A stretch of 20,606 bases of DNA from Halovenus sp. (GTDB taxonomy: Archaea; Halobacteriota; Halobacteria; Halobacteriales; Haloarculaceae): assembly GCA_003551265.1 (NCBI GenBank), contig PUMG01000203.1, positions 1 to 20,606 on the forward strand. The letters run 5' to 3'. The stretch's first letter is position 1. Each line of letters starts with the position of its first letter. Below are positions 6,359 to 19,046 of this stretch, in pieces. A program made the position numbers and the translations under genes. Under the pieces are notes generated by a model. The model saw only the letters and a program-made list of their open reading frames with translations. It did not search any database and was not told where the DNA came from.

Positions 6359-7174
6359 TCAGCGCCGGACAGGGACACCGCGCTCGTCGAGATACGTTTT
6401 GACCTCCTGAATCGAGTACTCGCCGAAGTGAAAAATCGAGGCTGCGAGCGCCGCGTCGGCGTCGGCATCGGTGAACACCTCGTAGGCGTCTTCGGGACCG
6501 CCACAGCCAGACGAAGCGATTACCGGCGTCGAGACGGCGTCACACACCGCCCGCATCAGCGGGATGTCGTAGCCGTCTTTCGTGCCGTCGGCGTCAATGG
6601 AGTTGACGAACAGTTCACCAGCACCCAGGGATTCGGCCTCTCTGGCCCACGAGACGACATCGACGCCGGTTCCTTCGCGGCCGCCTTTGACTGTGCATTC
6701 GAACCAGCAGGACTCGCCATCGGCCTCCACGTAGTGCTCGCCCTCGCTGTCGAAGCGTCGGCGGGCGTCGACCGAGATGACAATACACTGGCTCCCGAAC
6801 GCTCTCGCGCCATCCTCGATGAGCGTCGGGTTCTCCAGTGCCGCCGTGTTTATCGACACCTTGTCAGCACCAGCACGCAGGGTCTCTTTGATGTCCTCGC
6901 GAGTTCGGATACCCCCACCTACGGTGAGCGGGATGAACACCTCGTCGGCCACCGCACGGACGGTGTCGAGCATCGTCTCTCGCCCCTCTGCAGAGGCAGT
7001 GATATCGAGAAAGACGAATTCGTCGGCTCCCGCCTCGTTGTAGCGCTTGGCCATCTCGACCGGGTCGCCAGTGTACTCCAGATTCTCGAAGTTGACGCCG
7101 GTGTACACCGCCGGGTTCCCTTCGTCGTCCACATCGACGTCGATACACGGAATGATTCGTTTCGTGAGTACCAT
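6359..7174 (-). CDS. hisF: Imidazole glycerol phosphate synthase cyclase subunit HisF
   Basis: HisF joins PRFAR with ammonia delivered by the glutaminase HisH, giving imidazole glycerol phosphate (histidine pathway) and AICAR (purine pathway). The 271-residue sequence is a full (beta/alpha)8 barrel. It opens with [11 protein letters not shown], with catalytic Asp12. The phosphate-binding loops are [11 protein letters not shown] (about residues 85-95) and, late in the barrel, [12 protein letters not shown]. The second catalytic Asp is D136 in VISVDARRR. The C-terminal [15 protein letters not shown] is typical. The length is slightly above the bacterial norm, with acidic insertions as in haloarchaea. 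No other his gene is in the window. An AT-rich element inside an inverted repeat lies about 57 bp upstream and is the likely promoter. Confidence 0.96.
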
Positions 7175-7317: not shown

Positions 7318-8448
7318 CTACTCAGACATGTAGAAGAAATTCGGCGTTTTCACCGTCGTATCGTACGTCTGGTCGAACACGTGTGTCGTTGCAGAACTCA
7401 TCGGGGGAAGCAACCAACTGCGGTCACCAGTCACCTCTCGCCCAGCACGTTCTTCGTTTCGCTCGAACTGAGCGAACTGCTCGGTTGCGGTATGATGGTC
7501 GACGAGTGTGACGCCTGCCTCGTCGAAGGAGTGGACCACTGCGCGGTTGAGTTCAACGAGCGCTTCATCCTTCCAGAGCGAGCGATCCTCAGAGGTATCG
7601 TACCCGAGTCGGGTACCGATTTCCGCCAGCATATCGTATCGGTCCTCGTCAGCGAAGTTCCGTGCCCCGATTTCGGTGCTCAGATACCACCCGTTGAACG
7701 GGGCAGCGGTGTAGCTGATTCCACCGATTTCGAGTCGCATACTGGAGACAATCGGCACATCGTACCATCGCAGACCAAGTTCCCCAAACCAGTCGTACTG
7801 TGGGTGGGTGATCTCGACCTCTTCGAACAGCTCTGCTGGGACATCAAACAGTTCTGGCTCGTCATCACCGATCTGGATGACGTGTGGAAGCGGGTCGAAC
7901 GGGCCACCATCACCGTCCCACCCGTGTGATTGACAATACCGGGTAAACTCACACTCGGCTGGGTCACCGGCGATACCGTCTTCAGTCTCGTATCCGGCGT
8001 ACCGAAGTAGCTGGTAATTCCAGATTCGGATACGCTCAGTGTGGGGTGTCTCAGGTTGGAAAACAGTAATCGTCGGTCGGATATCGCCGCCGTTTCTGGC
8101 GTATTCGATGTGTCGACAGCACGCCTGGTGAATCTCTTCGGGTGTATCGAGGCTTCGTTCGTCGAGAACGTCCAGCGACTGCCAGAACAGCCGCCCGATA
8201 CACCGGTTGCTGTTGCGCCACGCTATCCGTGCCCCGTGAGTCAGTTCTTCTTCCGTGTGAGTGTACGTACCTGTCTGTGAAATTTCACGGTCGATGTCGG
8301 CCAGCCGAGAGTCGATTACCCACTCTCTTTCGAGCTCCTGGTAGCACTGTACGATAAACGAGTGTGCCAGTTCACGTAACGCCTCTGTACCGTACTCTGG
8401 AATCGGCCCGCTAAGCGCCCGCTCGTGTTGGCCGAGTGAATCGAGCAT
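7318..8448 (-). CDS. nos: Nitric oxide synthase, oxygenase domain only
   Basis: This 376-residue protein is a stand-alone NOS oxygenase domain, which oxidises L-arginine to citrulline and NO using haem and a reduced pterin. The haem-thiolate ligand is C83 in WRNSNRCIGR. The substrate-binding Glu is E259 in FNGWYLSTEIGARN. RYDML, LWKDEALVELNRAV and VDHHTATEQF follow, and the pterin region is GDRSWLLPP (residues 341-349). The match to Bacillus-type NOS is collinear to the C-terminal KTPNFFYMSE. No flavin reductase domain is attached or nearby, so electrons must come from a cellular redox partner. The ATG at 8448 gives the normal bacterial NOS length; an upstream in-frame GTG at 8508 adds 20 residues that do not look like NOS. 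V234 sits where Bacillus-type enzymes have Ile, and R343 replaces the first Trp of the usual DW-x-W pterin motif. The gene is divergent from a HalX response regulator across an 89-bp gap. Confidence 0.96.
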   Translation of the reverse strand: MLDSLGQHERALSGPIPEYGTEALRELAHSFIVQCYQELEREWVIDSRLADIDREISQTGTYTHTEEELTHGARIAWRNSNRCIGRLFWQSLDVLDERSLDTPEEIHQACCRHIEYARNGGDIRPTITVFQPETPHTERIRIWNYQLLRYAGYETEDGIAGDPAECEFTRYCQSHGWDGDGGPFDPLPHVIQIGDDEPELFDVPAELFEEVEITHPQYDWFGELGLRWYDVPIVSSMRLEIGGISYTAAPFNGWYLSTEIGARNFADEDRYDMLAEIGTRLGYDTSEDRSLWKDEALVELNRAVVHSFDEAGVTLVDHHTATEQFAQFERNEERAGREVTGDRSWLLPPMSSATTHVFDQTYDTTVKTPNFFYMSE

Positions 8449-8516: not shown

Positions 8517-8537
8517 GATGGGGTGTGCAGGTTAGGT

Positions 8538-9113
8538 GTGTCCGAGGGAACCGAGCAAACCACCGTTCTGGTCGTCGACGACGAACCCGAAGTAGCCGAC
8601 GTGTACGCGTTGCGGCTTCGGAACAACTTCGAGACGCGCGTCGCCTACAGCGGCCAGGAGGCGCTCGACGGACTCGACGAGCACATCGATGTCGTGTTGC
8701 TCGACAGGCGGATGCCCGACGTCTCGGGTGACGACGTGCTGGAATCGATTCGAGAGAACGGCTACGACTGTCGGGTCATCATGCTGACTGCGGTCGACCC
8801 CGGTCTCGACATCGTCGATATGCCGTTCGACGACTACCTGTGCAAACCGGTCGAGAAGGAAGCACTCGTCGACGCCATCGAGCAACAACTCGACGTGAAA
8901 CGCTACGACGAACAGCTTTCGACGTACCTCGAACTCACGTCGAAACTCGCACACCTCGAGCGTGACCTCCTGCGTGACGATGTCGAAGAACACGAAGAAC
9001 TCCGCGAGTTACGTGAGGAGGCCGCCGAGCTCCGGGCCGAGTTGCGCGACGTCGTGACGGAACTCGACGAGGTCGAGTCTGCATTCACCGACATCGAGCG
9101 TCATCCTGGCTGA
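8538..9113 (+). CDS. HalX-domain response regulator
   Basis: This 191-residue protein has a receiver domain (residues 8-118). The acidic pair is D14-D15 in LVVDDEP, the phosphoacceptor Asp is D56 in VVLLDRRMPDVSG, the switch Thr is T84 in IMLTA, and the conserved Lys is K103 in LCKPVEK. The C-terminal part (about 125-190) is highly charged and probably coiled-coil, as in the HalX domain found almost only in haloarchaeal response regulators. There is no classical DNA-binding domain, so the output mechanism is unknown. No histidine kinase gene is adjacent. The GTG at 8538 was chosen for its TATA spacing. The gene lies divergent from NOS and 72 bp before an MBL hydrolase on the same strand. Confidence 0.92.
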   Translation: MSEGTEQTTVLVVDDEPEVADVYALRLRNNFETRVAYSGQEALDGLDEHIDVVLLDRRMPDVSGDDVLESIRENGYDCRVIMLTAVDPGLDIVDMPFDDYLCKPVEKEALVDAIEQQLDVKRYDEQLSTYLELTSKLAHLERDLLRDDVEEHEELRELREEAAELRAELRDVVTELDEVESAFTDIERHPG

Positions 9114-10139: not shown

Positions 10140-10412
10140 TCACGGGACGTCATCGTCACTCTGCATGAAATCGGGAAGTTCGCCGGTTTTGTCCCGTGCA
10201 TTTTCGACCTCCTCCGGGTCGATATCTAACGCTTCGAGAACGTGCCGTTCCTTCGCTGGCGTGTCGATAACGTCCCCACTCTCTCCCCGGTGGAGTGCCA
10301 CGGCCTCGTCGAGATTTTCGAGCGCCTCGATTCGAGTCTCGCCCTGAGTCGTCACTCCCGTCTCGATATCTTTCGCGACCCACCAGTCCGCAGATTTCAC
10401 GAGGCGAATCAA
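10140..10412 (-). CDS. Orphan HicB-like antitoxin
   Basis: This 90-residue protein matches the partial-RNase-H-fold HicB antitoxins. IRLVKSADWWVAKDIETG is the first hairpin, TTQGETRIEALENLDEAVAL the signature helix, and an acidic tail of about 40 residues follows. It shares a near-identical core with the HicB near 18.8 kb. No hicA lies on either side: downstream there are only 45 bp to the MBL gene, and upstream is a thioesterase gene. The only full-length start is TTG at 10412, whose last two bases are the first two of the thioesterase TGA stop (TTGA), suggesting translational coupling. GTG at 10400 is the alternative and would remove four residues. It could be a solo regulator, a partner for a distant HicA, or a remnant that lost its toxin. 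Confidence 0.8.
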   Translation of the reverse strand: MIRLVKSADWWVAKDIETGVTTQGETRIEALENLDEAVALHRGESGDVIDTPAKERHVLEALDIDPEEVENARDKTGELPDFMQSDDDVP

Positions 10413-12173: not shown

Positions 12174-15100
12174 ATGTTCAGCAACTGGAATCGAGCATCG
12201 ACGTTCACAGAAAATCCGCTTTGTCACCGAGGGTTCGTTTTGCTGTCTGTACTTGTTGTCCTCATCGTGAGCATCGCTGCAGTGAGTGCGTCTGGTTTCG
12301 CTGGGACGGCAGTCGCATCGTCGGACGAAATTATCGTCAACGAGACTGGTAGCGGTGATTACGAGAGCATTGAGGATGCAATCAACGCCTCGGAACCAGG
12401 AGATACTATTCTCGTCGAGGATGGGACCTACAATGAGTCAGTGCTCGTGGACGTGGAGAATCTGACGATTATCGCGGCAGAAGGACACACACCAGTGGTG
12501 GACGGTGAAGTCGAGGAGGACGATAACCTCAGAGTTGCGTTCAACGTGAGCAACGCGGAGAACGTCACGCTGGATGGGCTGACTATCCGCAACCACCGTC
12601 CGGAGATGATCGTCTCGAACGCGAGCGACGGACTCGAACTCCGGAACCTCGACCTGGATCTCCGTTTCGAAGGTCTCGGAAGTGAAACAGACACCACAGT
12701 GGACCAGGAGTCATCCGAAGGGACGATAATCAGTGGGAGAGCAATCAACCTGGAGTACTCGAACGAGACCGTAATCGAGTCGAACAAAATTACTGGCGAA
12801 AATCCGGGACGGGGAGAGGCAATTCAGTTGCGAAACTCAATCGATCCGACGGTAGACAACAACACGATAGAAGATCTCGGAACGAGTATCACACTGTGGG
12901 ATTCGCCCGGTGCGACAGTCACCAACAACAGCGTTGACGACCTGCTGGGAGACGCAGTATTGACAGGCAGTGGTATCAGACTCGTCGATTCGAACGAGAC
13001 ACGTGTCGAAAATAACGACATGTACCGTGTCGACCACAACGGTGTCAGTGTCACGCGTAGCCACGATGTCGAGGTTCGAAACAACCTCATCGATCACGCA
13101 CCCGAAGCTGGGATTCGGGGACTGGACTCACCCAATATAACAGTAGAAGAGAACGTGGTCGAGGGCTTTGGTGGCTCACTTACATCGGGGATAGAGGTGG
13201 CAGGTGCGTCCCACAACGGGACCGTTTTCCAGAATAACATCACCAGCACCGGTACCGGAGTGTTGGCTAATCAAGAAAGCAGCGATGTGACCTTCGAGCA
13301 GAATGTAATCGCCGAATCAGAACGTTCCGGTATCGAGGTCGCCAACGCGTCCGGAATCGTCTTCGACGCGAACGAAGTAATCGACGGTGAGATCGGACTC
13401 TCGTTCGAAAGTCCTGCTTCTCTGGATACCGAGGTAAGAAACAACGTCTTCTCGGGTAACGCCGCGGATATGGACATCATCAACGCGACCAACGCGGTAG
13501 TCGCTGATAACGAGATGGAACGAGGTATTCTCATGCGTGGCTGGGAGAGAAGCGACGCCGACCACGAGTTCACTGACAACACAGTCGGTGGCGACCCGCT
13601 GGAATACGTTCACGACGAAGACGGCTATACAGTCACCGGTGAGCCCGGTCAGGTAATCGTCGTCGACTCGACCGACATCGTCGTCGATGGGACAACACAC
13701 GAAGATGTCGTTGCACCCGTCCAGGTTCGTTACAGTGAGGACGTCACTGTGACTGACATCGATTCGTCAGGGACGATTGTACCAGTAGCGGACCTTCCGA
13801 GCTGGTACGACGGTATCGTCGTCAGCGAGTCGACCGAAGTGACGGTGGCCAACAGCGTCATCACGAACAGCTCGCAGGGTGGAATCGGCGTCATCAGGTC
13901 CGACAACACGACCATCGAGGAGAGTACACTCCAGGACAACCAGCGGGCTGGAATCAGACTCGGGCGGAGCGACGGACCGGTGATAGTGAACAACACCGTC
14001 GAGAGAACGGGTGCGGGTGGACATGGACTCGAACTGACTTTCCCCGGACCGGACGGTGAGGTCACGAACAACACGTTCGCCGATAACAACAGAGGCATCG
14101 AAGCGACGGTGACGGCCGCAGACCCCCTCGTCAGATGGAGCTTTAGCGAAAACGTCCTGCGAGAGAATGCCCGAGACGGAATGTGGATAGGTGGGGATGC
14201 AGACGAGGTCGACCTGACGCACAACGAGTTCGTCCGGAACGAGAGGGAAGGCCTCGATTACGGCGGAACGCCAGCCCTGAACGCCACTGACAACTGGTGG
14301 AACCATCCCACCGGGCCCAGTGGTGGCGAGCAGGACCCCGACACCGGAACGGTTGCCGACGGAGATGGCGAGGAGCTATCCGGCGAGGTCAGGTTCGACC
14401 CGTGGCTCGATGAGCCAGTAGTCGGTCCGGACAGGCTGGCGACGTTCGAGTGGAGTCCGGAATCACCACTGGTCGACGAATCCGTCGAGTTCGACGCTGC
14501 GAGGTCCTACTCGATTGCGGGCGGCATTCAGGAGTACCGCTGGGATGTGACCGGAAACGGGACCGTCGATGAGGTAACAAACGAGTCAAACGTGGTACAC
14601 GACTACGCGCTACCTGGCTCCTACGACGTCGAACTCGAAATTGAAGACGGTGACGGTGAGACAACAAGCGTAACCGAGAGAGTCAACGTCGCTCAGGAGA
14701 TGGACACGGAGTGGACGTTCACACAGGACCAGGCTTCGTTCGGCTCTGGAGCGACGGTTGTCGACGGAATGGTGTACACTGCGGAGTTCGACGGAATTCT
14801 GTACGCACTCGACACCGAGACCGAGACAGACGAGTGGGAGTTCGAGGCTGAAGACTGGATTCGGGGAGTGCCTGCCGTCTCTGACGACACTGTCTACACC
14901 GGCGACCGGAACGGAACTCTCTACGCGCTCGACGCCGACAGCGGTGACGAGGACTGGACGTACCATGCCGATGATGAGATTCAGACGTCACCGACCGTCT
15001 CGAATGACACCGTCTACTTCGGAAGTGACGACAATCACATCTATGCGGTCGATGCAGCAACGGGTGACGAGGAGTGGACGTTCGAGACCAACGGGACAGT

Positions 15101-17489
15101 GGAGTCCTCGGCTACGGTTGTCGATGGGACGGTGTACATCGGGAGTGACGACAACCACACGTACGCCCTGAATGCCGAGACAGGACTCGAACAGTGGCGC
15201 TTCGAGACCGACGGCCCCGTCGAATCCTCACCCACGGTTACTGATGGAACCGTCTACGTTGGGAGCAACGACGAGAATCTCTACGCACTGGATGCAGAGA
15301 CCGGTGCCGAAGACTGGTATTTCGAAACCGGTGACGAAGTGGTCTCGTCGCCAACCGCGTTCGACGGAACTGTCTACGTCGGGAGTAACGACGAGCACGT
15401 CTACGCAATCGATGCTGACACCGGCGCTCTCGAGTGGGAGTTCGAGGCGGCCGGTTCCGTCAGACAGTCCCCAACAGTCGCTCACGGCATCGTTTACGTC
15501 GGTGCTGACAAGACCGGTGGTGGAGTCGTCTATGGACTCGACGCCGAGACCGGTCAGTCGCTGTTGCGGTCCGAACTCGGGGCGAACCCCTCGACACCGA
15601 TAGTCGTCGAAGGTACCGTCTACGTCGGAAGTAACTTTGAAAACTTCTACGCGCTAGACGGCTGGATTGCCGGGTCGAGTGAGGGGACACGAGTGTTGCT
15701 CGAAACGCTCGGTCACCACAACGGCGAACTCGTAGGCCCGACCGCGGAGTTCGCTGTTCACTCCGATGTTTTCAAGACTGGAAGCGAGATACAGTTCGAC
15801 GCGCTCCGGTCGTCTGCCCCAGGTGGTATCGAGGAGTATCGCTGGGATTTCACTGGTGACGGGAGTTTCGAGGAGACGACCACCGAGTTCAGCACTACCC
15901 ACATCTACGATGACCCAGGCCGTTACAACGTCACGCTCCAGATTGTCTACGGAGACGGACAAACTGCAGAAACGAGCAAGACACTCGACGTACCAGCCTG
16001 GGAGTTCGAGACCGACGACGAAGTCTACTCTTCTCCGACGATTGTCGAAGACACCGTCTACGTCGGAAGTGATGACAACAACCTCTACGCCGTCCACGCC
16101 GACAACGGGAGCGAAAAGTGGAGCTTCGAGGCTGGATTGTCCGTGAGGTCCTCGCCGACAGTTGGAGATGACGTCGTCTACGTCGGAAGCAACGACGACA
16201 ATCTCTATGCGATACACGCAGACAACGGGAGCGAGAAGTGGAGCTTCGAGACGGGCGACACCGTCTTCTCCTCCCCCACGGTCGTAGACGATGTGGTCTA
16301 CGTCGGCAGTGCCGACGACCACGTCTACGCGATACACGCACACAACGGGAGCGAGAAGTGGAGTTACGATACTGGCAACGACGTCTGGTCCTCGCCAACC
16401 GTCGTAGATGACGTCGTCTACGTCGGCAGCTATCCGGGTGCAGGTGATACAGTCCACGCGCTGCACGCTGATAACGGGAGCAAGATGTGGGGCTACGAAA
16501 TCGACGCGTTCGTGTACTCGTCGCCGACGGTCGCAGACGGGACGGTCTATGTCGGCAGCAGCGACAGTTACGTCTACGCCTTCGACGCCGAGACCGGCAC
16601 GAAAGAGTGGAAGTTCGAGACAGACGACAGCGTCTGGTCCTCACCGACGGTCGACGACGACCTGGTGTACGTCGGAAGTGAGGACTGGCACCTCTATGCG
16701 ATACACGCAACCAACGGCACCGAGGCGTGGGAGTTCGAGACGCAACAGGGAATCGAGTCCTCACCGACCGTCGCTGACGGGGTCGTCTACTTCGGCGGCC
16801 AGGAGAGCTTCGACTCCGAAGATGGCCGTATCTACGGACTCGACGCCCAGACCGGTGACCAGGTGTGGCACTTCGACCTCGGTGGACCGATCTACTCCTC
16901 GCCGACGGTGTACGAGGGAGTCGTCTACGTCGGAAACAGCGACTTCGGAAACTACAGGCTCTTAGCGATTGGGGCTGCGACGGACGGGTCGAGTAGCGAC
17001 TCGCGCGTTCTGGGCGAGACGCTCGGCCACCACGACGGCGACGTCGAAACCGGGGATGCGTTCTTCGACGTCGGGTTCGTCGACCTGCCGTCGGAAGTCA
17101 AAGACGGCTTCAACCTGACCGTCGACTACGAGGTCGAGAACACCGGCGACGCGACCGGTACCCAGGACGTCTCGCTGTTCGTCGAGAGCGAAGAGGTGAA
17201 CGTAACACAACTGACGCTCGCAGAAAGCGAGAGCGAAGCCCGAACAGTCATCCACAACACTCTCGAAGACGACGTGGGTGACCTCAATCTCACCGTCGAA
17301 ACCGACGACGATACCGCCGAGGCGACAGTCGAAGTCCTCCACAGCGTCGTCACCTACGCAGATGGAGAGGGCGTTGTGGGAACTGACGGCCTGCTCGACG
17401 CAATCAGTGACTGGCGCGGAGACGATATCGACACTGACCTGCTGCTCGACGTCATCAACGCCTGGCGCTCCGGCGAGGACGTGACGTAG
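12174..17489 (+). CDS. Giant secreted beta-helix / PKD / PQQ-propeller protein with dockerin-like tail
   Basis: This is a 1771-residue exoprotein. Residues 1-49 form a Sec-type signal (hydrophobic core FVLLSVLVVLIVSIAAVSAS, no twin Arg, no lipobox). Residues about 55-745 form a right-handed parallel beta-helix with roughly 20 irregular coils of the NosD/pectate-lyase type (NNTIEDLG, RNNLIDHAP, QNNITSTG and similar), closed by NATDNWWNHPTGPSGG near residue 702. Then come PKD domain 1 (754-841), an eight-blade PQQ-like propeller (842-1165), a GHH linker, PKD domain 2 (1193-1276), a second eight-blade propeller (1276-1603), a second GHH linker, a CARDB-like domain (1629-1725), and a dockerin-like tail with two similar halves (LLDAISDWRGDDID, LLDVINAWRSGEDV). 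Many N-x-S/T sequons suggest N-glycosylation. There is no PGF-CTERM or C-terminal membrane anchor. The roles are probably binding or adhesion; no catalytic site is evident. Preceding regulatory palindromes suggest tight control. Confidence 0.9.
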   Translation: MFSNWNRASTFTENPLCHRGFVLLSVLVVLIVSIAAVSASGFAGTAVASSDEIIVNETGSGDYESIEDAINASEPGDTILVEDGTYNESVLVDVENLTIIAAEGHTPVVDGEVEEDDNLRVAFNVSNAENVTLDGLTIRNHRPEMIVSNASDGLELRNLDLDLRFEGLGSETDTTVDQESSEGTIISGRAINLEYSNETVIESNKITGENPGRGEAIQLRNSIDPTVDNNTIEDLGTSITLWDSPGATVTNNSVDDLLGDAVLTGSGIRLVDSNETRVENNDMYRVDHNGVSVTRSHDVEVRNNLIDHAPEAGIRGLDSPNITVEENVVEGFGGSLTSGIEVAGASHNGTVFQNNITSTGTGVLANQESSDVTFEQNVIAESERSGIEVANASGIVFDANEVIDGEIGLSFESPASLDTEVRNNVFSGNAADMDIINATNAVVADNEMERGILMRGWERSDADHEFTDNTVGGDPLEYVHDEDGYTVTGEPGQVIVVDSTDIVVDGTTHEDVVAPVQVRYSEDVTVTDIDSSGTIVPVADLPSWYDGIVVSESTEVTVANSVITNSSQGGIGVIRSDNTTIEESTLQDNQRAGIRLGRSDGPVIVNNTVERTGAGGHGLELTFPGPDGEVTNNTFADNNRGIEATVTAADPLVRWSFSENVLRENARDGMWIGGDADEVDLTHNEFVRNEREGLDYGGTPALNATDNWWNHPTGPSGGEQDPDTGTVADGDGEELSGEVRFDPWLDEPVVGPDRLATFEWSPESPLVDESVEFDAARSYSIAGGIQEYRWDVTGNGTVDEVTNESNVVHDYALPGSYDVELEIEDGDGETTSVTERVNVAQEMDTEWTFTQDQASFGSGATVVDGMVYTAEFDGILYALDTETETDEWEFEAEDWIRGVPAVSDDTVYTGDRNGTLYALDADSGDEDWTYHADDEIQTSPTVSNDTVYFGSDDNHIYAVDAATGDEEWTFETNGTVESSATVVDGTVYIGSDDNHTYALNAETGLEQWRFETDGPVESSPTVTDGTVYVGSNDENLYALDAETGAEDWYFETGDEVVSSPTAFDGTVYVGSNDEHVYAIDADTGALEWEFEAAGSVRQSPTVAHGIVYVGADKTGGGVVYGLDAETGQSLLRSELGANPSTPIVVEGTVYVGSNFENFYALDGWIAGSSEGTRVLLETLGHHNGELVGPTAEFAVHSDVFKTGSEIQFDALRSSAPGGIEEYRWDFTGDGSFEETTTEFSTTHIYDDPGRYNVTLQIVYGDGQTAETSKTLDVPAWEFETDDEVYSSPTIVEDTVYVGSDDNNLYAVHADNGSEKWSFEAGLSVRSSPTVGDDVVYVGSNDDNLYAIHADNGSEKWSFETGDTVFSSPTVVDDVVYVGSADDHVYAIHAHNGSEKWSYDTGNDVWSSPTVVDDVVYVGSYPGAGDTVHALHADNGSKMWGYEIDAFVYSSPTVADGTVYVGSSDSYVYAFDAETGTKEWKFETDDSVWSSPTVDDDLVYVGSEDWHLYAIHATNGTEAWEFETQQGIESSPTVADGVVYFGGQESFDSEDGRIYGLDAQTGDQVWHFDLGGPIYSSPTVYEGVVYVGNSDFGNYRLLAIGAATDGSSSDSRVLGETLGHHDGDVETGDAFFDVGFVDLPSEVKDGFNLTVDYEVENTGDATGTQDVSLFVESEEVNVTQLTLAESESEARTVIHNTLEDDVGDLNLTVETDDDTAEATVEVLHSVVTYADGEGVVGTDGLLDAISDWRGDDIDTDLLLDVINAWRSGEDVT
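14698..15665 (+). repeat. PQQ-like propeller repeats, module 1
   Basis: Eight repeats of about 40 residues carry the core VYxGSxDxxxYALDAxTG. The middle blades keep an exact or nearly exact 120-bp spacing (TG..EW/DW motifs near 15061, 15180, 15300 and 15420). The first two blades are the most diverged. A blade with an insertion (VYVGADKTGGGVVYGLD) is seventh. They encode the first propeller of the giant exoprotein. Confidence 0.85.
16000..16980 (+). repeat. PQQ-like propeller repeats, module 2
   Basis: Eight blades of about 40 residues, mostly SSPTVxDDVVYVGSxDDxxYAIHA. Blades 1-3 share GACAACGGGAGCG or nearly the same DNA at exact 120-bp spacing (16101, 16221, 16341), and blade 4 repeats it after a 9-bp insertion. 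This DNA-level identity points to recent blade duplication. Later blades (TGTKEW, NGTEAW, TGDQVW) are more diverged. Confidence 0.88.
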
Positions 17490-18456: not shown

Positions 18457-18699
18457 TCAGAGAATGTCGTCGATCCAGTCACACCATCGATGGAAGTCGT
18501 CGGCACCACATTGGTTGGAGATGTTTCGGAGCGTGTCGCCGCTGATCTCTTTGCCCATCGGAATCGTGACGTTTCGGACTTCCCCGGTCTCTGGATGGAC
18601 GTACCGGAGTTTGAGGTGACTGCCAGCCCGGTCAACTGGCTGGTACCCCATTCCCGTGAGCGCCGTCACGAGCTCTCGAGACGAATATGGGGCAGGCAC
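18457..18699 (-). CDS. hicA: HicA family mRNA-interferase toxin
   Basis: This 80-residue protein is a type II toxin with the double-stranded-RNA-binding-like fold. The N-terminal helix is SSRELVTALTGMGYQPVDRA. The catalytic His is H28 in GSHLKLRYVHPETG, and NVTIPMGKEISGDTLRNI is the conserved second half. Known HicA toxins cleave mRNA and tmRNA in translating cells. The start is GTG at 18699, two bases after the stop of hicB, so the pair is tightly coupled with the antitoxin first. The length is normal and the catalytic His is present, so it is likely functional. The pair lies between the VOC gene and thrC and looks like an inserted accessory module, although no boundary repeats are visible. 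Confidence 0.93.
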   Translation of the reverse strand: MPAPYSSRELVTALTGMGYQPVDRAGSHLKLRYVHPETGEVRNVTIPMGKEISGDTLRNISNQCGADDFHRWCDWIDDIL

Positions 18700-18701
18700 A
18701 G

Positions 18702-18983
18702 TTACTCAGAAAACCACGGTGCATCAGGTTCCTGTGGTTCGGCCGGAACTGTGTCAGGGTCAATCCCGAGATCGCGCAGATCGGCATCTGTTACCGGTTC
18801 CCCGATCTCTCCCCTGTGCAGTGCGACTGCCTCGTCCAGATTAGCGAGCGCCTCAGACCGTGTCTCACCCTGACTTGCCACCTCCTCCCCTTCGTCGATT
18901 GCTGACCACCGGCCGTCTTTCTCCTTGACGAGGCGAATCTCTCGCCGCCCCGAATCCAAATCACCGGTGTCAGCTCGTGCCAT
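18702..18983 (-). CDS. hicB: HicB family antitoxin
   Basis: This 93-residue antitoxin is cognate to the adjacent HicA. REIRLVKEKDGRWSAIDEGE is the first hairpin and SQGETRSEALANLDEAVALH the family signature helix, followed by an acidic C-terminal tail. The ATG at 18983 was chosen over an in-frame start at 19040 because a TATA-like GTTTTTACC is centred about 26 bp upstream, giving a leaderless transcript. No ribbon-helix-helix or HTH tail is evident, so DNA binding for autoregulation would have to come from the complex or from another protein. Its core closely matches the orphan HicB at 10.1-10.4 kb. Confidence 0.92.
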   Translation of the reverse strand: MARADTGDLDSGRREIRLVKEKDGRWSAIDEGEEVASQGETRSEALANLDEAVALHRGEIGEPVTDADLRDLGIDPDTVPAEPQEPDAPWFSE

Positions 18984-19013
18984 GTACCTCAGTACTTGAC
19001 CGAGGGTAAAAAC
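18984..19013 (-). promoter_or_regulatory. hicBA promoter with GTAC-N4-GTAC operator candidate
   Basis: The minus-strand TATA-like element GTTTTTACC (19005-19013) lies at the leaderless distance from the hicB ATG. Between it and the ATG is GTACCTCAGTAC (18984-18995), an inverted pair of GTAC sites exactly at the predicted transcription start. It is a good candidate site for toxin-antitoxin autoregulation or for a separate repressor. Confidence 0.5.
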
Positions 19014-19046
19014 GCTTCGGGAGTCCAGTGACTGCGACATGCTCCG

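What the first reader, a model, noticed from the sequence alone, without database searches (positions are those of the whole stretch)
7318..8448. Stand-alone nitric oxide synthase oxygenase in a haloarchaeon
Seen: the complete NOS oxygenase signature (haem Cys in WRNSNRCIGR, substrate Glu in TEIGARN, C-terminal DHHTA and PNFFY), with no reductase domain or flavoprotein nearby. Known: bacterial NOS of this form use non-dedicated reductases; archaeal NOS are rare and little studied. Inference: this is a functional NO source in a halophile whose redox partner (ferredoxin or flavodoxin) and pterin cofactor are unknown.
Basis: partly seen in the sequence, partly recalled or inferred. Interest (0 to 1): 0.8.

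Follow-up and report, generated by a model that had tools for sequence, protein, structure and literature searches.

The report
Haloarchaeal nitric oxide synthase oxygenase gene
A salt-loving archaeon carries a bacterial-type enzyme that should make the signalling gas nitric oxide; such genes are already known in a minority of haloarchaea, but this one shows a recurring change at the cofactor site that deserves a test.

Summary
Window 7318-8448 (-) encodes a complete 376-aa NOS oxygenase (Pfam 534.9 bits, cut-off 22.7; E 3e-136 to solved bacterial NOS) with haem Cys, substrate Glu and no fused reductase. None of the window's 20 predicted genes is a flavodoxin, ferredoxin or FNR protein. In kind it is ordinary: 24 of 392 sampled genomes of the order have the gene, and the Natronomonas pharaonis homologue was published in 2020 (seen as a citation). 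The 135 archaeal-clade rows group together inside a sample of mostly Bacillota NOS. Unreported as far as I could search: Trp327 (B. subtilis numbering; iNOS Trp455, a published pterin contact) is Arg/Lys in 69 of 124 distinct archaeal-clade sequences, this one included, and in 0 of 97 readable other rows; it changed at least 9 times on the tree, with linked neighbours. The NO-gate residue is Val in 110 of 124, as in animals. Most likely mechanism: arginine to citrulline plus NO, with a ferredoxin as donor and tetrahydrofolate as pterin (both inferred; a flavodoxin-like donor is not excluded).

The parts
7318..8448 (-). NOS oxygenase gene, 376 aa plus stop (ATG start)
   Evidence: Pfam PF02898 534.9 bits; PDB NOS E 3.1e-136; start supported by relatives
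8200..8202 (-). haem-ligand Cys83 codon
   Evidence: residue numbering; aligns with bsNOS Cys66
8014..8016 (-). Tyr145 codon, at the position of bsNOS His128 (second gate, recalled)
7747..7749 (-). Val234 codon, NO-gate position (bsNOS Ile218; iNOS Val346 recalled)
7672..7674 (-). substrate Glu259 codon (bsNOS Glu243)
7420..7422 (-). Arg343 codon (CGC) at the pterin-site position of iNOS Trp455 / bsNOS Trp327
6359..7174 (-). hisF, downstream neighbour; not part of the NOS function
   Evidence: NCBIfam TIGR00735 362.5 bits; in G224 hisF lies 897 bases from the HalX regulator and NOS lies elsewhere
8523..9113 (+). divergent HalX response regulator; no evidence that it controls NOS
   Evidence: Pfam Response_reg and HalX; 62-70% identical relatives in 15 of 17 other genomes of the genus, with or without NOS

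Best explanation
The gene encodes a working bacterial-type NOS oxygenase (dimer by family) that oxidises L-arginine through N-hydroxyarginine to citrulline and NO at a Cys-ligated haem. Haloarchaea probably gained it once from a Bacillota-like donor and have since passed it around and lost it patchily. Electrons come most likely from a halophilic [2Fe-2S] ferredoxin (I give this about 0.55; a Flavodoxin_5 protein in the genome is a rival donor), and the pterin is probably tetrahydrofolate, the haloarchaeal C1 carrier (about 0.5). Val at the gate should let NO leave faster than from wild-type B. subtilis NOS. Shown: family, active-site residues, clade, lack of a linked reductase. Inferred: activity, donor, pterin, rate. 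The confidence below is for the first sentence.
For: Pfam 534.9 bits; 54-58% identical to solved B. subtilis and Geobacillus NOS. Cys, substrate Glu and the pterin residues Arg247, Trp329 and Phe342 (bsNOS numbers) kept. One archaeal clade of 135 rows, support 1.0, within the sampled Bacillota NOS. Patchy: 24 of 392 in the order and 13 of 146 in the family, own genome included, one of the 13 a remnant. All 8 hits in a 392-genome phylum sample lie in this order (how many of the 392 lie outside the order is not shown). Own genome holds Fer2 matches, an MptA-type GTP cyclohydrolase and a Pterin_bind-family gene and no FNR-type NAD_binding_1 match. Haloarchaea use tetrahydrofolate (PMC8305020, passages read).
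Against: No activity was measured here. One of the five iNOS residues reported to contact BH4, Trp455, is Arg here, so normal pterin binding cannot be assumed. The own genome is 88% complete, so absences are weak. TrxB-like flavodoxin reductases (recalled as the B. subtilis type) were not searched. The own genome has a Flavodoxin_5 protein, and weak Flavodoxin_1 hits at E <= 1e-3 are commoner in carriers (10 of 28) than in the chosen non-carriers (1 of 23); relatedness was not controlled, but this speaks for a flavodoxin-like donor.
Confidence: 0.88

Rival explanations
1. The protein is a NOS-fold haem enzyme that has lost normal pterin-coupled NO synthesis, because the iNOS Trp455 position is Arg; it works by a peroxide shunt or makes other nitrogen oxides.
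For: The Trp455-equivalent is Arg in this protein and Arg/Lys in 69 of 124 distinct archaeal-clade sequences, never in 97 readable other rows.
Against: The other four listed pterin contacts are kept. The Arg form recurs on several branches with linked changes, which fits adaptation better than decay. The NOS of N. pharaonis, the published archaeal one, is of the Arg form.
Confidence: 0.1
2. The gene is a passenger: a transferred copy without a role in this host.
For: Patchy presence, different positions within the genus, no neighbour conserved across families in the stretches compared, and a broken NOS remnant in one same-genus genome.
Against: Intact frame; strongly acidic make-up (pI 4.5, net charge -39 over a 358-residue cropped row, against pI 5.7 and 6.2 for the bacillar rows), so it is long adapted to high salt; a 97% identical copy in another assembly.
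Confidence: 0.08
3. The divergent HalX response regulator and NOS form a dedicated signalling pair.
For: Divergent neighbours with under 100 bases between the likely starts.
Against: 62-70% identical relatives of the regulator occur in genomes of the genus where no NOS was found (for example G268, G182, G421); in G224 the regulator lies beside hisF while NOS is 37 kb away.
Confidence: 0.04

Closest known systems
Natronomonas pharaonis NOS (Orsini et al. 2020, MicrobiologyOpen 9:e1124; seen only as a citation)
   Same: 67% identical (row L034 of G148); same stand-alone form, gate Val and Arg at the Trp455 position. G148 contig 1 has the length printed for the N. pharaonis DSM 2160 sequence, 2595221.
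   Different: Different genus and genomic neighbours. What that paper found (NO formation supported by peroxide, a knockout with phenotypes) is recalled, not read.
Natronomonas salsuginis NOS (G043, row L038; matched by the N50 of 675769 printed in PMC7232251)
   Same: 85% identical, same pterin-site block.
   Different: Different neighbours.
Bacillus subtilis and Geobacillus stearothermophilus NOS (PDB 11yv and 4d7i; 2flq; species names recalled)
   Same: 54-58% identical, stand-alone oxygenase, same catalytic residues.
   Different: Ile at the gate in 2flq and in the bsNOS sequence with most entries (11yv, 68 entries); 4d7i has Val. Trp327 present, less acidic.
Animal NOS oxygenase domain
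   Same: Sequence match to the oxygenase domain; haem Cys, substrate Glu, four of five BH4 contacts and Val at the gate.
   Different: No reductase domain, no N-terminal zinc hook (hook recalled); Arg instead of Trp455.

Membership tests
NOS oxygenase (PF02898) | Profile match over curated cut-off along the full domain | tested here: met
   534.9 bits against 22.7, positions 3-357 of 362
NOS oxygenase (PF02898) | Haem-ligand Cys and substrate Glu | tested here: met
   Cys83, Glu259; alignments
NOS oxygenase (PF02898) | NO and citrulline from arginine | not testable with these tools
   needs a bench assay
Bacterial-type stand-alone NOS | No fused reductase domain | tested here: met
   376 aa, NOS domain only; no redox-carrier or reductase gene among the 20 window genes
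Bacterial-type stand-alone NOS | No N-terminal zinc-hook extension | tested here: met
   Only 82 residues precede the haem Cys and the first Cys is residue 35 (sequence); the animal hook is recalled
BH4 contact set of animal NOS (iNOS Arg193, Arg375, Trp455, Trp457, Phe470; PMC3795282) | Arg193, Arg375, Trp457, Phe470 equivalents | tested here: met
   Arg82, Arg263, Trp345, Phe358; equivalence to iNOS numbers by motif spacing, no iNOS row was aligned
BH4 contact set of animal NOS (iNOS Arg193, Arg375, Trp455, Trp457, Phe470; PMC3795282) | Trp455 equivalent | tested here: not met
   Arg343
Flavodoxin-coupled NOS as in B. subtilis (recalled) | A canonical flavodoxin in the genome | tested here: inconclusive
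   One partial Flavodoxin_1 hit, 23.5 bits in the genome search and 26.3 in the protein scan (cut-off 25); the protein is Flavodoxin_5, 125.1 bits; genome 88% complete

The most novel reading that the evidence does not exclude
Haloarchaea repeatedly rebuilt the pterin and dimer-interface site of an enzyme acquired from bacteria. Trp at the iNOS Trp455 position becomes Arg together with Leu331, Ser336 and often Met334, so that the site takes the acidic tail of tetrahydrofolate instead of BH4. With the Val gate this would make archaeal NOS a folate-driven, fast-releasing form of NOS.
Probability: 0.25. Interest if true: 0.6.

Novelty: new member of a known kind. Interest (0 to 1): 0.35.

Why it matters
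Which pterin and which electron donor serve stand-alone NOS in vivo looks open for archaea. The recurrent Trp-to-Arg switch gives a natural set of related enzymes, with and without the Trp, on which pterin choice can be tested. The Val gate is a natural counterpart of mutants made in bacterial and animal NOS. Otherwise the finding adds one more archaeal NOS to a known, patchy group.

Tried and rejected
Conserved gene neighbourhood as a pointer to the redox partner: 28 NOS loci (the window, 20 stretches of 12-18 kb and 7 loci of up to about 4 kb) were compared. Shared neighbours recur mostly inside a genus or one family. Of the 309 predicted proteins outside the window that are not NOS, 15 were scanned with Pfam; none was a ferredoxin, flavodoxin or FNR, and one small protein had no match. 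The rest were not scanned. The first run missed 8 of the 28 NOS genes because longer antisense frames won; one search used codon scores instead and found 28 of 28.

Gene conversion as the source of the shared Arg block: pairs of Arg-type genes do not share more identical codons in the block than elsewhere (mean excess -0.046, sd 0.112, 120 pairs; Trp-Trp 0.008, 101 pairs; mixed -0.015, 185 pairs). Single pairs with the window do show an excess (L036: 0.64 against 0.49; L053: 0.53 against 0.39). Ancient exchange cannot be excluded.

One origin of the Arg form: an AU test rejects the 69 Arg/Lys rows as one clade (p 2.4e-52, quick tree with LG+G4), but the group was named after seeing a tree, so the p value is not formal. 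Only 4 independent pairs lie on well-supported branches. Leu331 and Ser336 each go with Arg in on average 2.7 of them and never against; too few for significance.

Papers: Orsini et al. 2020 is not held. A search for 'npNOS', 'archaeal NOS' and similar phrases found two papers on other subjects, so the claim that the Trp455-position Arg is unreported rests on a library that lacks the key paper. No structure was predicted; the sequence match to solved NOS made it unnecessary.

Rows: one search failed to extract NOS from 13 of 83 loci; one search replaced that step. L105 gave only 8 residues before a stop and was kept as a row; its place there means nothing. The bsNOS row (4d7i) carries Val at 218 whereas the commoner bsNOS sequence has Ile, so one of the 23 non-archaeal Val counts is probably an engineered mutant. 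Of 135 archaeal-clade rows, 11 duplicates or short rows were dropped to give 124. Many protein rows are unnamed and are called archaeal by their place in the tree. The NOS remnant of G416 was left out of the 28 carriers.

Full report
What is there. The minus strand at 7318-8448 encodes 376 residues with a full-length NOS oxygenase domain (534.9 bits, cut-off 22.7). The best solved relatives are bacillar NOS. The mechanical ORF starts 60 bases earlier at a GTG, but the ATG at 8448 matches the starts of the nearest relatives. The window is a complete 20.6-kb contig of a genome that is 88% complete. Its genus is inferred to be Halovenus from matching contig lengths.

Surroundings. Twenty genes were predicted and all were scanned with Pfam. 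Upstream and divergent is a response regulator with a HalX domain; downstream is hisF. Others include an MBL-fold hydrolase, a thiolase, an MscS-type channel, an RNA polymerase L-type subunit, an M48 peptidase and a 1771-residue beta-propeller/beta-helix/PKD protein. None is a flavodoxin, ferredoxin or FNR-type reductase. What fills the 897 bases was not examined. In three other genomes with both genes on one contig (G304, G416, G357) hisF and the regulator lie about 23-36 kb apart, so their closeness is itself not a rule. NOS thus stands at different places within the genus, and the regulator does not look like a dedicated partner.

Distribution. NOS matches occurred in 24 of 392 genomes sampled from the order, 13 of 146 in the family (one of the 13 is a short remnant with a stop) and 8 of 392 in a phylum sample, all 8 in the same order (the answer does not say how many of the 392 lie outside the order). 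Each count includes the window's own genome. The protein search scored 7997 candidates and found 5461 relatives at E <= 1e-10, of which the best 120 were listed and used.

Phylogeny. A FastTree of 233 rows, rooted on a NOS from a viral-collection contig, places all archaeal loci in one clade of 135 rows (support 1.0) inside Bacillota (the middle of the printed tree was cut). No Bacillota locus falls in it. Branches just outside have support from 0.06 to 0.91, so the donor lineage is not resolved. Because the bacterial rows were picked by similarity to the query, distant NOS (Deinococcus, actinobacteria, animals) were not in the tree. The simplest reading is one transfer from a Bacillota-like donor, followed by transfers and losses among haloarchaea.

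Active site. Positions are given in B. subtilis numbering, anchored on Glu243 (recalled). In the halo loci set (33 rows, a few of them the same genome twice) and the Bacillota set (75 rows, 74 readable), Cys66, Glu243, Arg247 and Trp329 are invariant. Position 218, the NO gate, is Val in 31 of 33 halo rows and Ile in 55 of 74 Bacillota rows. A paper on nNOS says that this Val is conserved in animal NOS and is Ile in most bacterial NOS, where NO dissociation is much slower (PMC6120233, abstract and passages read). Position 128 is Tyr in 25 of 33 halo rows and His in 59 of 74 Bacillota rows; that His128 corresponds to a second gate residue studied in Geobacillus NOS is recalled.

Pterin site. 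Position 327 is two residues before Trp329, hence iNOS Trp455 and Trp457. A paper on eNOS lists Trp455, Trp457, Phe470, Arg375 and Arg193 of iNOS as residues that interact with BH4 (PMC3795282, passages read). Position 327 is Arg in 68 and Lys in 1 of 124 distinct archaeal-clade sequences and Trp in 97 of 97 readable other rows. Here it is Arg343, codon CGC. On a tree built without positions 322-347, 128 and 218, the Trp/Arg state changes at least 9 times, and holding the Arg rows together is strongly rejected. Arg goes with Leu331 (64 of 69, against 0 of 55 with Trp), Ser336 (57 of 69 against 0 of 55) and Met334 (45 of 69 against 6 of 55); these counts ignore relatedness. The DNA of the block shows no general sign of recent exchange. 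The Arg codons vary among 16 Arg loci (CGA 6, CGT 4, CGC 3, CGG 2, AGA 1), which also fits old or separate origins.

Reading. The repeated coordinated change at a cofactor contact suggests adaptation to a different pterin or to dimer packing in high salt. Haloarchaea use tetrahydrofolate (PMC8305020, passages read), and this genome has an MptA-type GTP cyclohydrolase and a Pterin_bind-family gene. BH4-specific enzymes were not searched. That Arg meets the acidic folate tail is my inference. Dimer packing, or drift at a tolerant position, remain open.

Electron donor. Over-cut-off Flavodoxin_1 matches were found in 4 of 51 chosen genomes, all partial. Matches at E <= 1e-3 were in 10 of 28 carriers and 1 of 23 non-carriers; the non-carriers were taken from listed rows, not at random, and relatedness was not controlled. 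The window genome's match scored 23.5 bits in that search and 26.3 (over the cut-off of 25) when the protein was scanned on its own, but its best family is Flavodoxin_5 (125.1 bits), recalled as the fold of HemG-type enzymes. NAD_binding_1 was in 8 of 28 carriers and 6 of 23 non-carriers and not in the own genome. The own genome has five Fer2 matches on four open frames. A ferredoxin donor is my favoured reading, not shown, and a flavodoxin-like one is not excluded.

Known work. Bacterial-like NOS in Natronomonas pharaonis was published in 2020; I saw it only as a reference or one-line mention in four papers and it is not in the library. G148 is taken to be that species, since its contig 1 length equals the value printed for N. 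pharaonis DSM 2160 (table passage of PMC7232251), and its NOS (L034) has the same Val and Arg.

Verdict. A real, complete and probably functional NOS; a new member of a known, patchy archaeal group; not a surprise in itself. The pterin-site switch is the part worth following.

Noticed in passing
window 18457-19040 (-) and 10140-10412 (-): HicA-like toxin gene beside a DUF7387 gene, probably a toxin-antitoxin pair, and a second DUF7387 gene 8 kb away next to no HicA match.
   Followed up: no
window 12174-17489 (+): 1771-residue protein with PQQ-type beta-propellers, beta-helix (NosD-like) and PKD domains, probably a cell-surface protein.
   Followed up: no
L130, L131, L132: Three IMG/VR contigs of 124-165 kb encode NOS 42-52% identical to the query; viral origin or host contamination not checked.
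   Followed up: no
L049 (G416:C1:469647-469913): Short NOS remnant with an internal stop in a same-genus genome, a sign of gene loss.
   Followed up: no
L027-L031: In five genomes of one family members of two protein clusters lie near NOS: an EF-Tu-like GTPase and a methenyl-pterin cyclohydrolase (MCH), identified by Pfam in L028 only. In four of the five an unidentified small protein (87-135 aa) directly precedes NOS on the same strand.
   Followed up: partly
L041, L044: In two genomes of one genus a gene identified in L044 as SCO1/SenC directly follows NOS on the same strand.
   Followed up: partly
L141 and L146 (G000 contig C149): In the window's own genome a Fer2 match and a Pterin_bind match lie about 2.4 kb apart on one contig.
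   Followed up: no
L137 1857-2450 (+) (G000 contig C305): Flavodoxin_5 protein of 197 aa in the window's own genome, a possible redox carrier or a HemG-type enzyme.
   Followed up: partly
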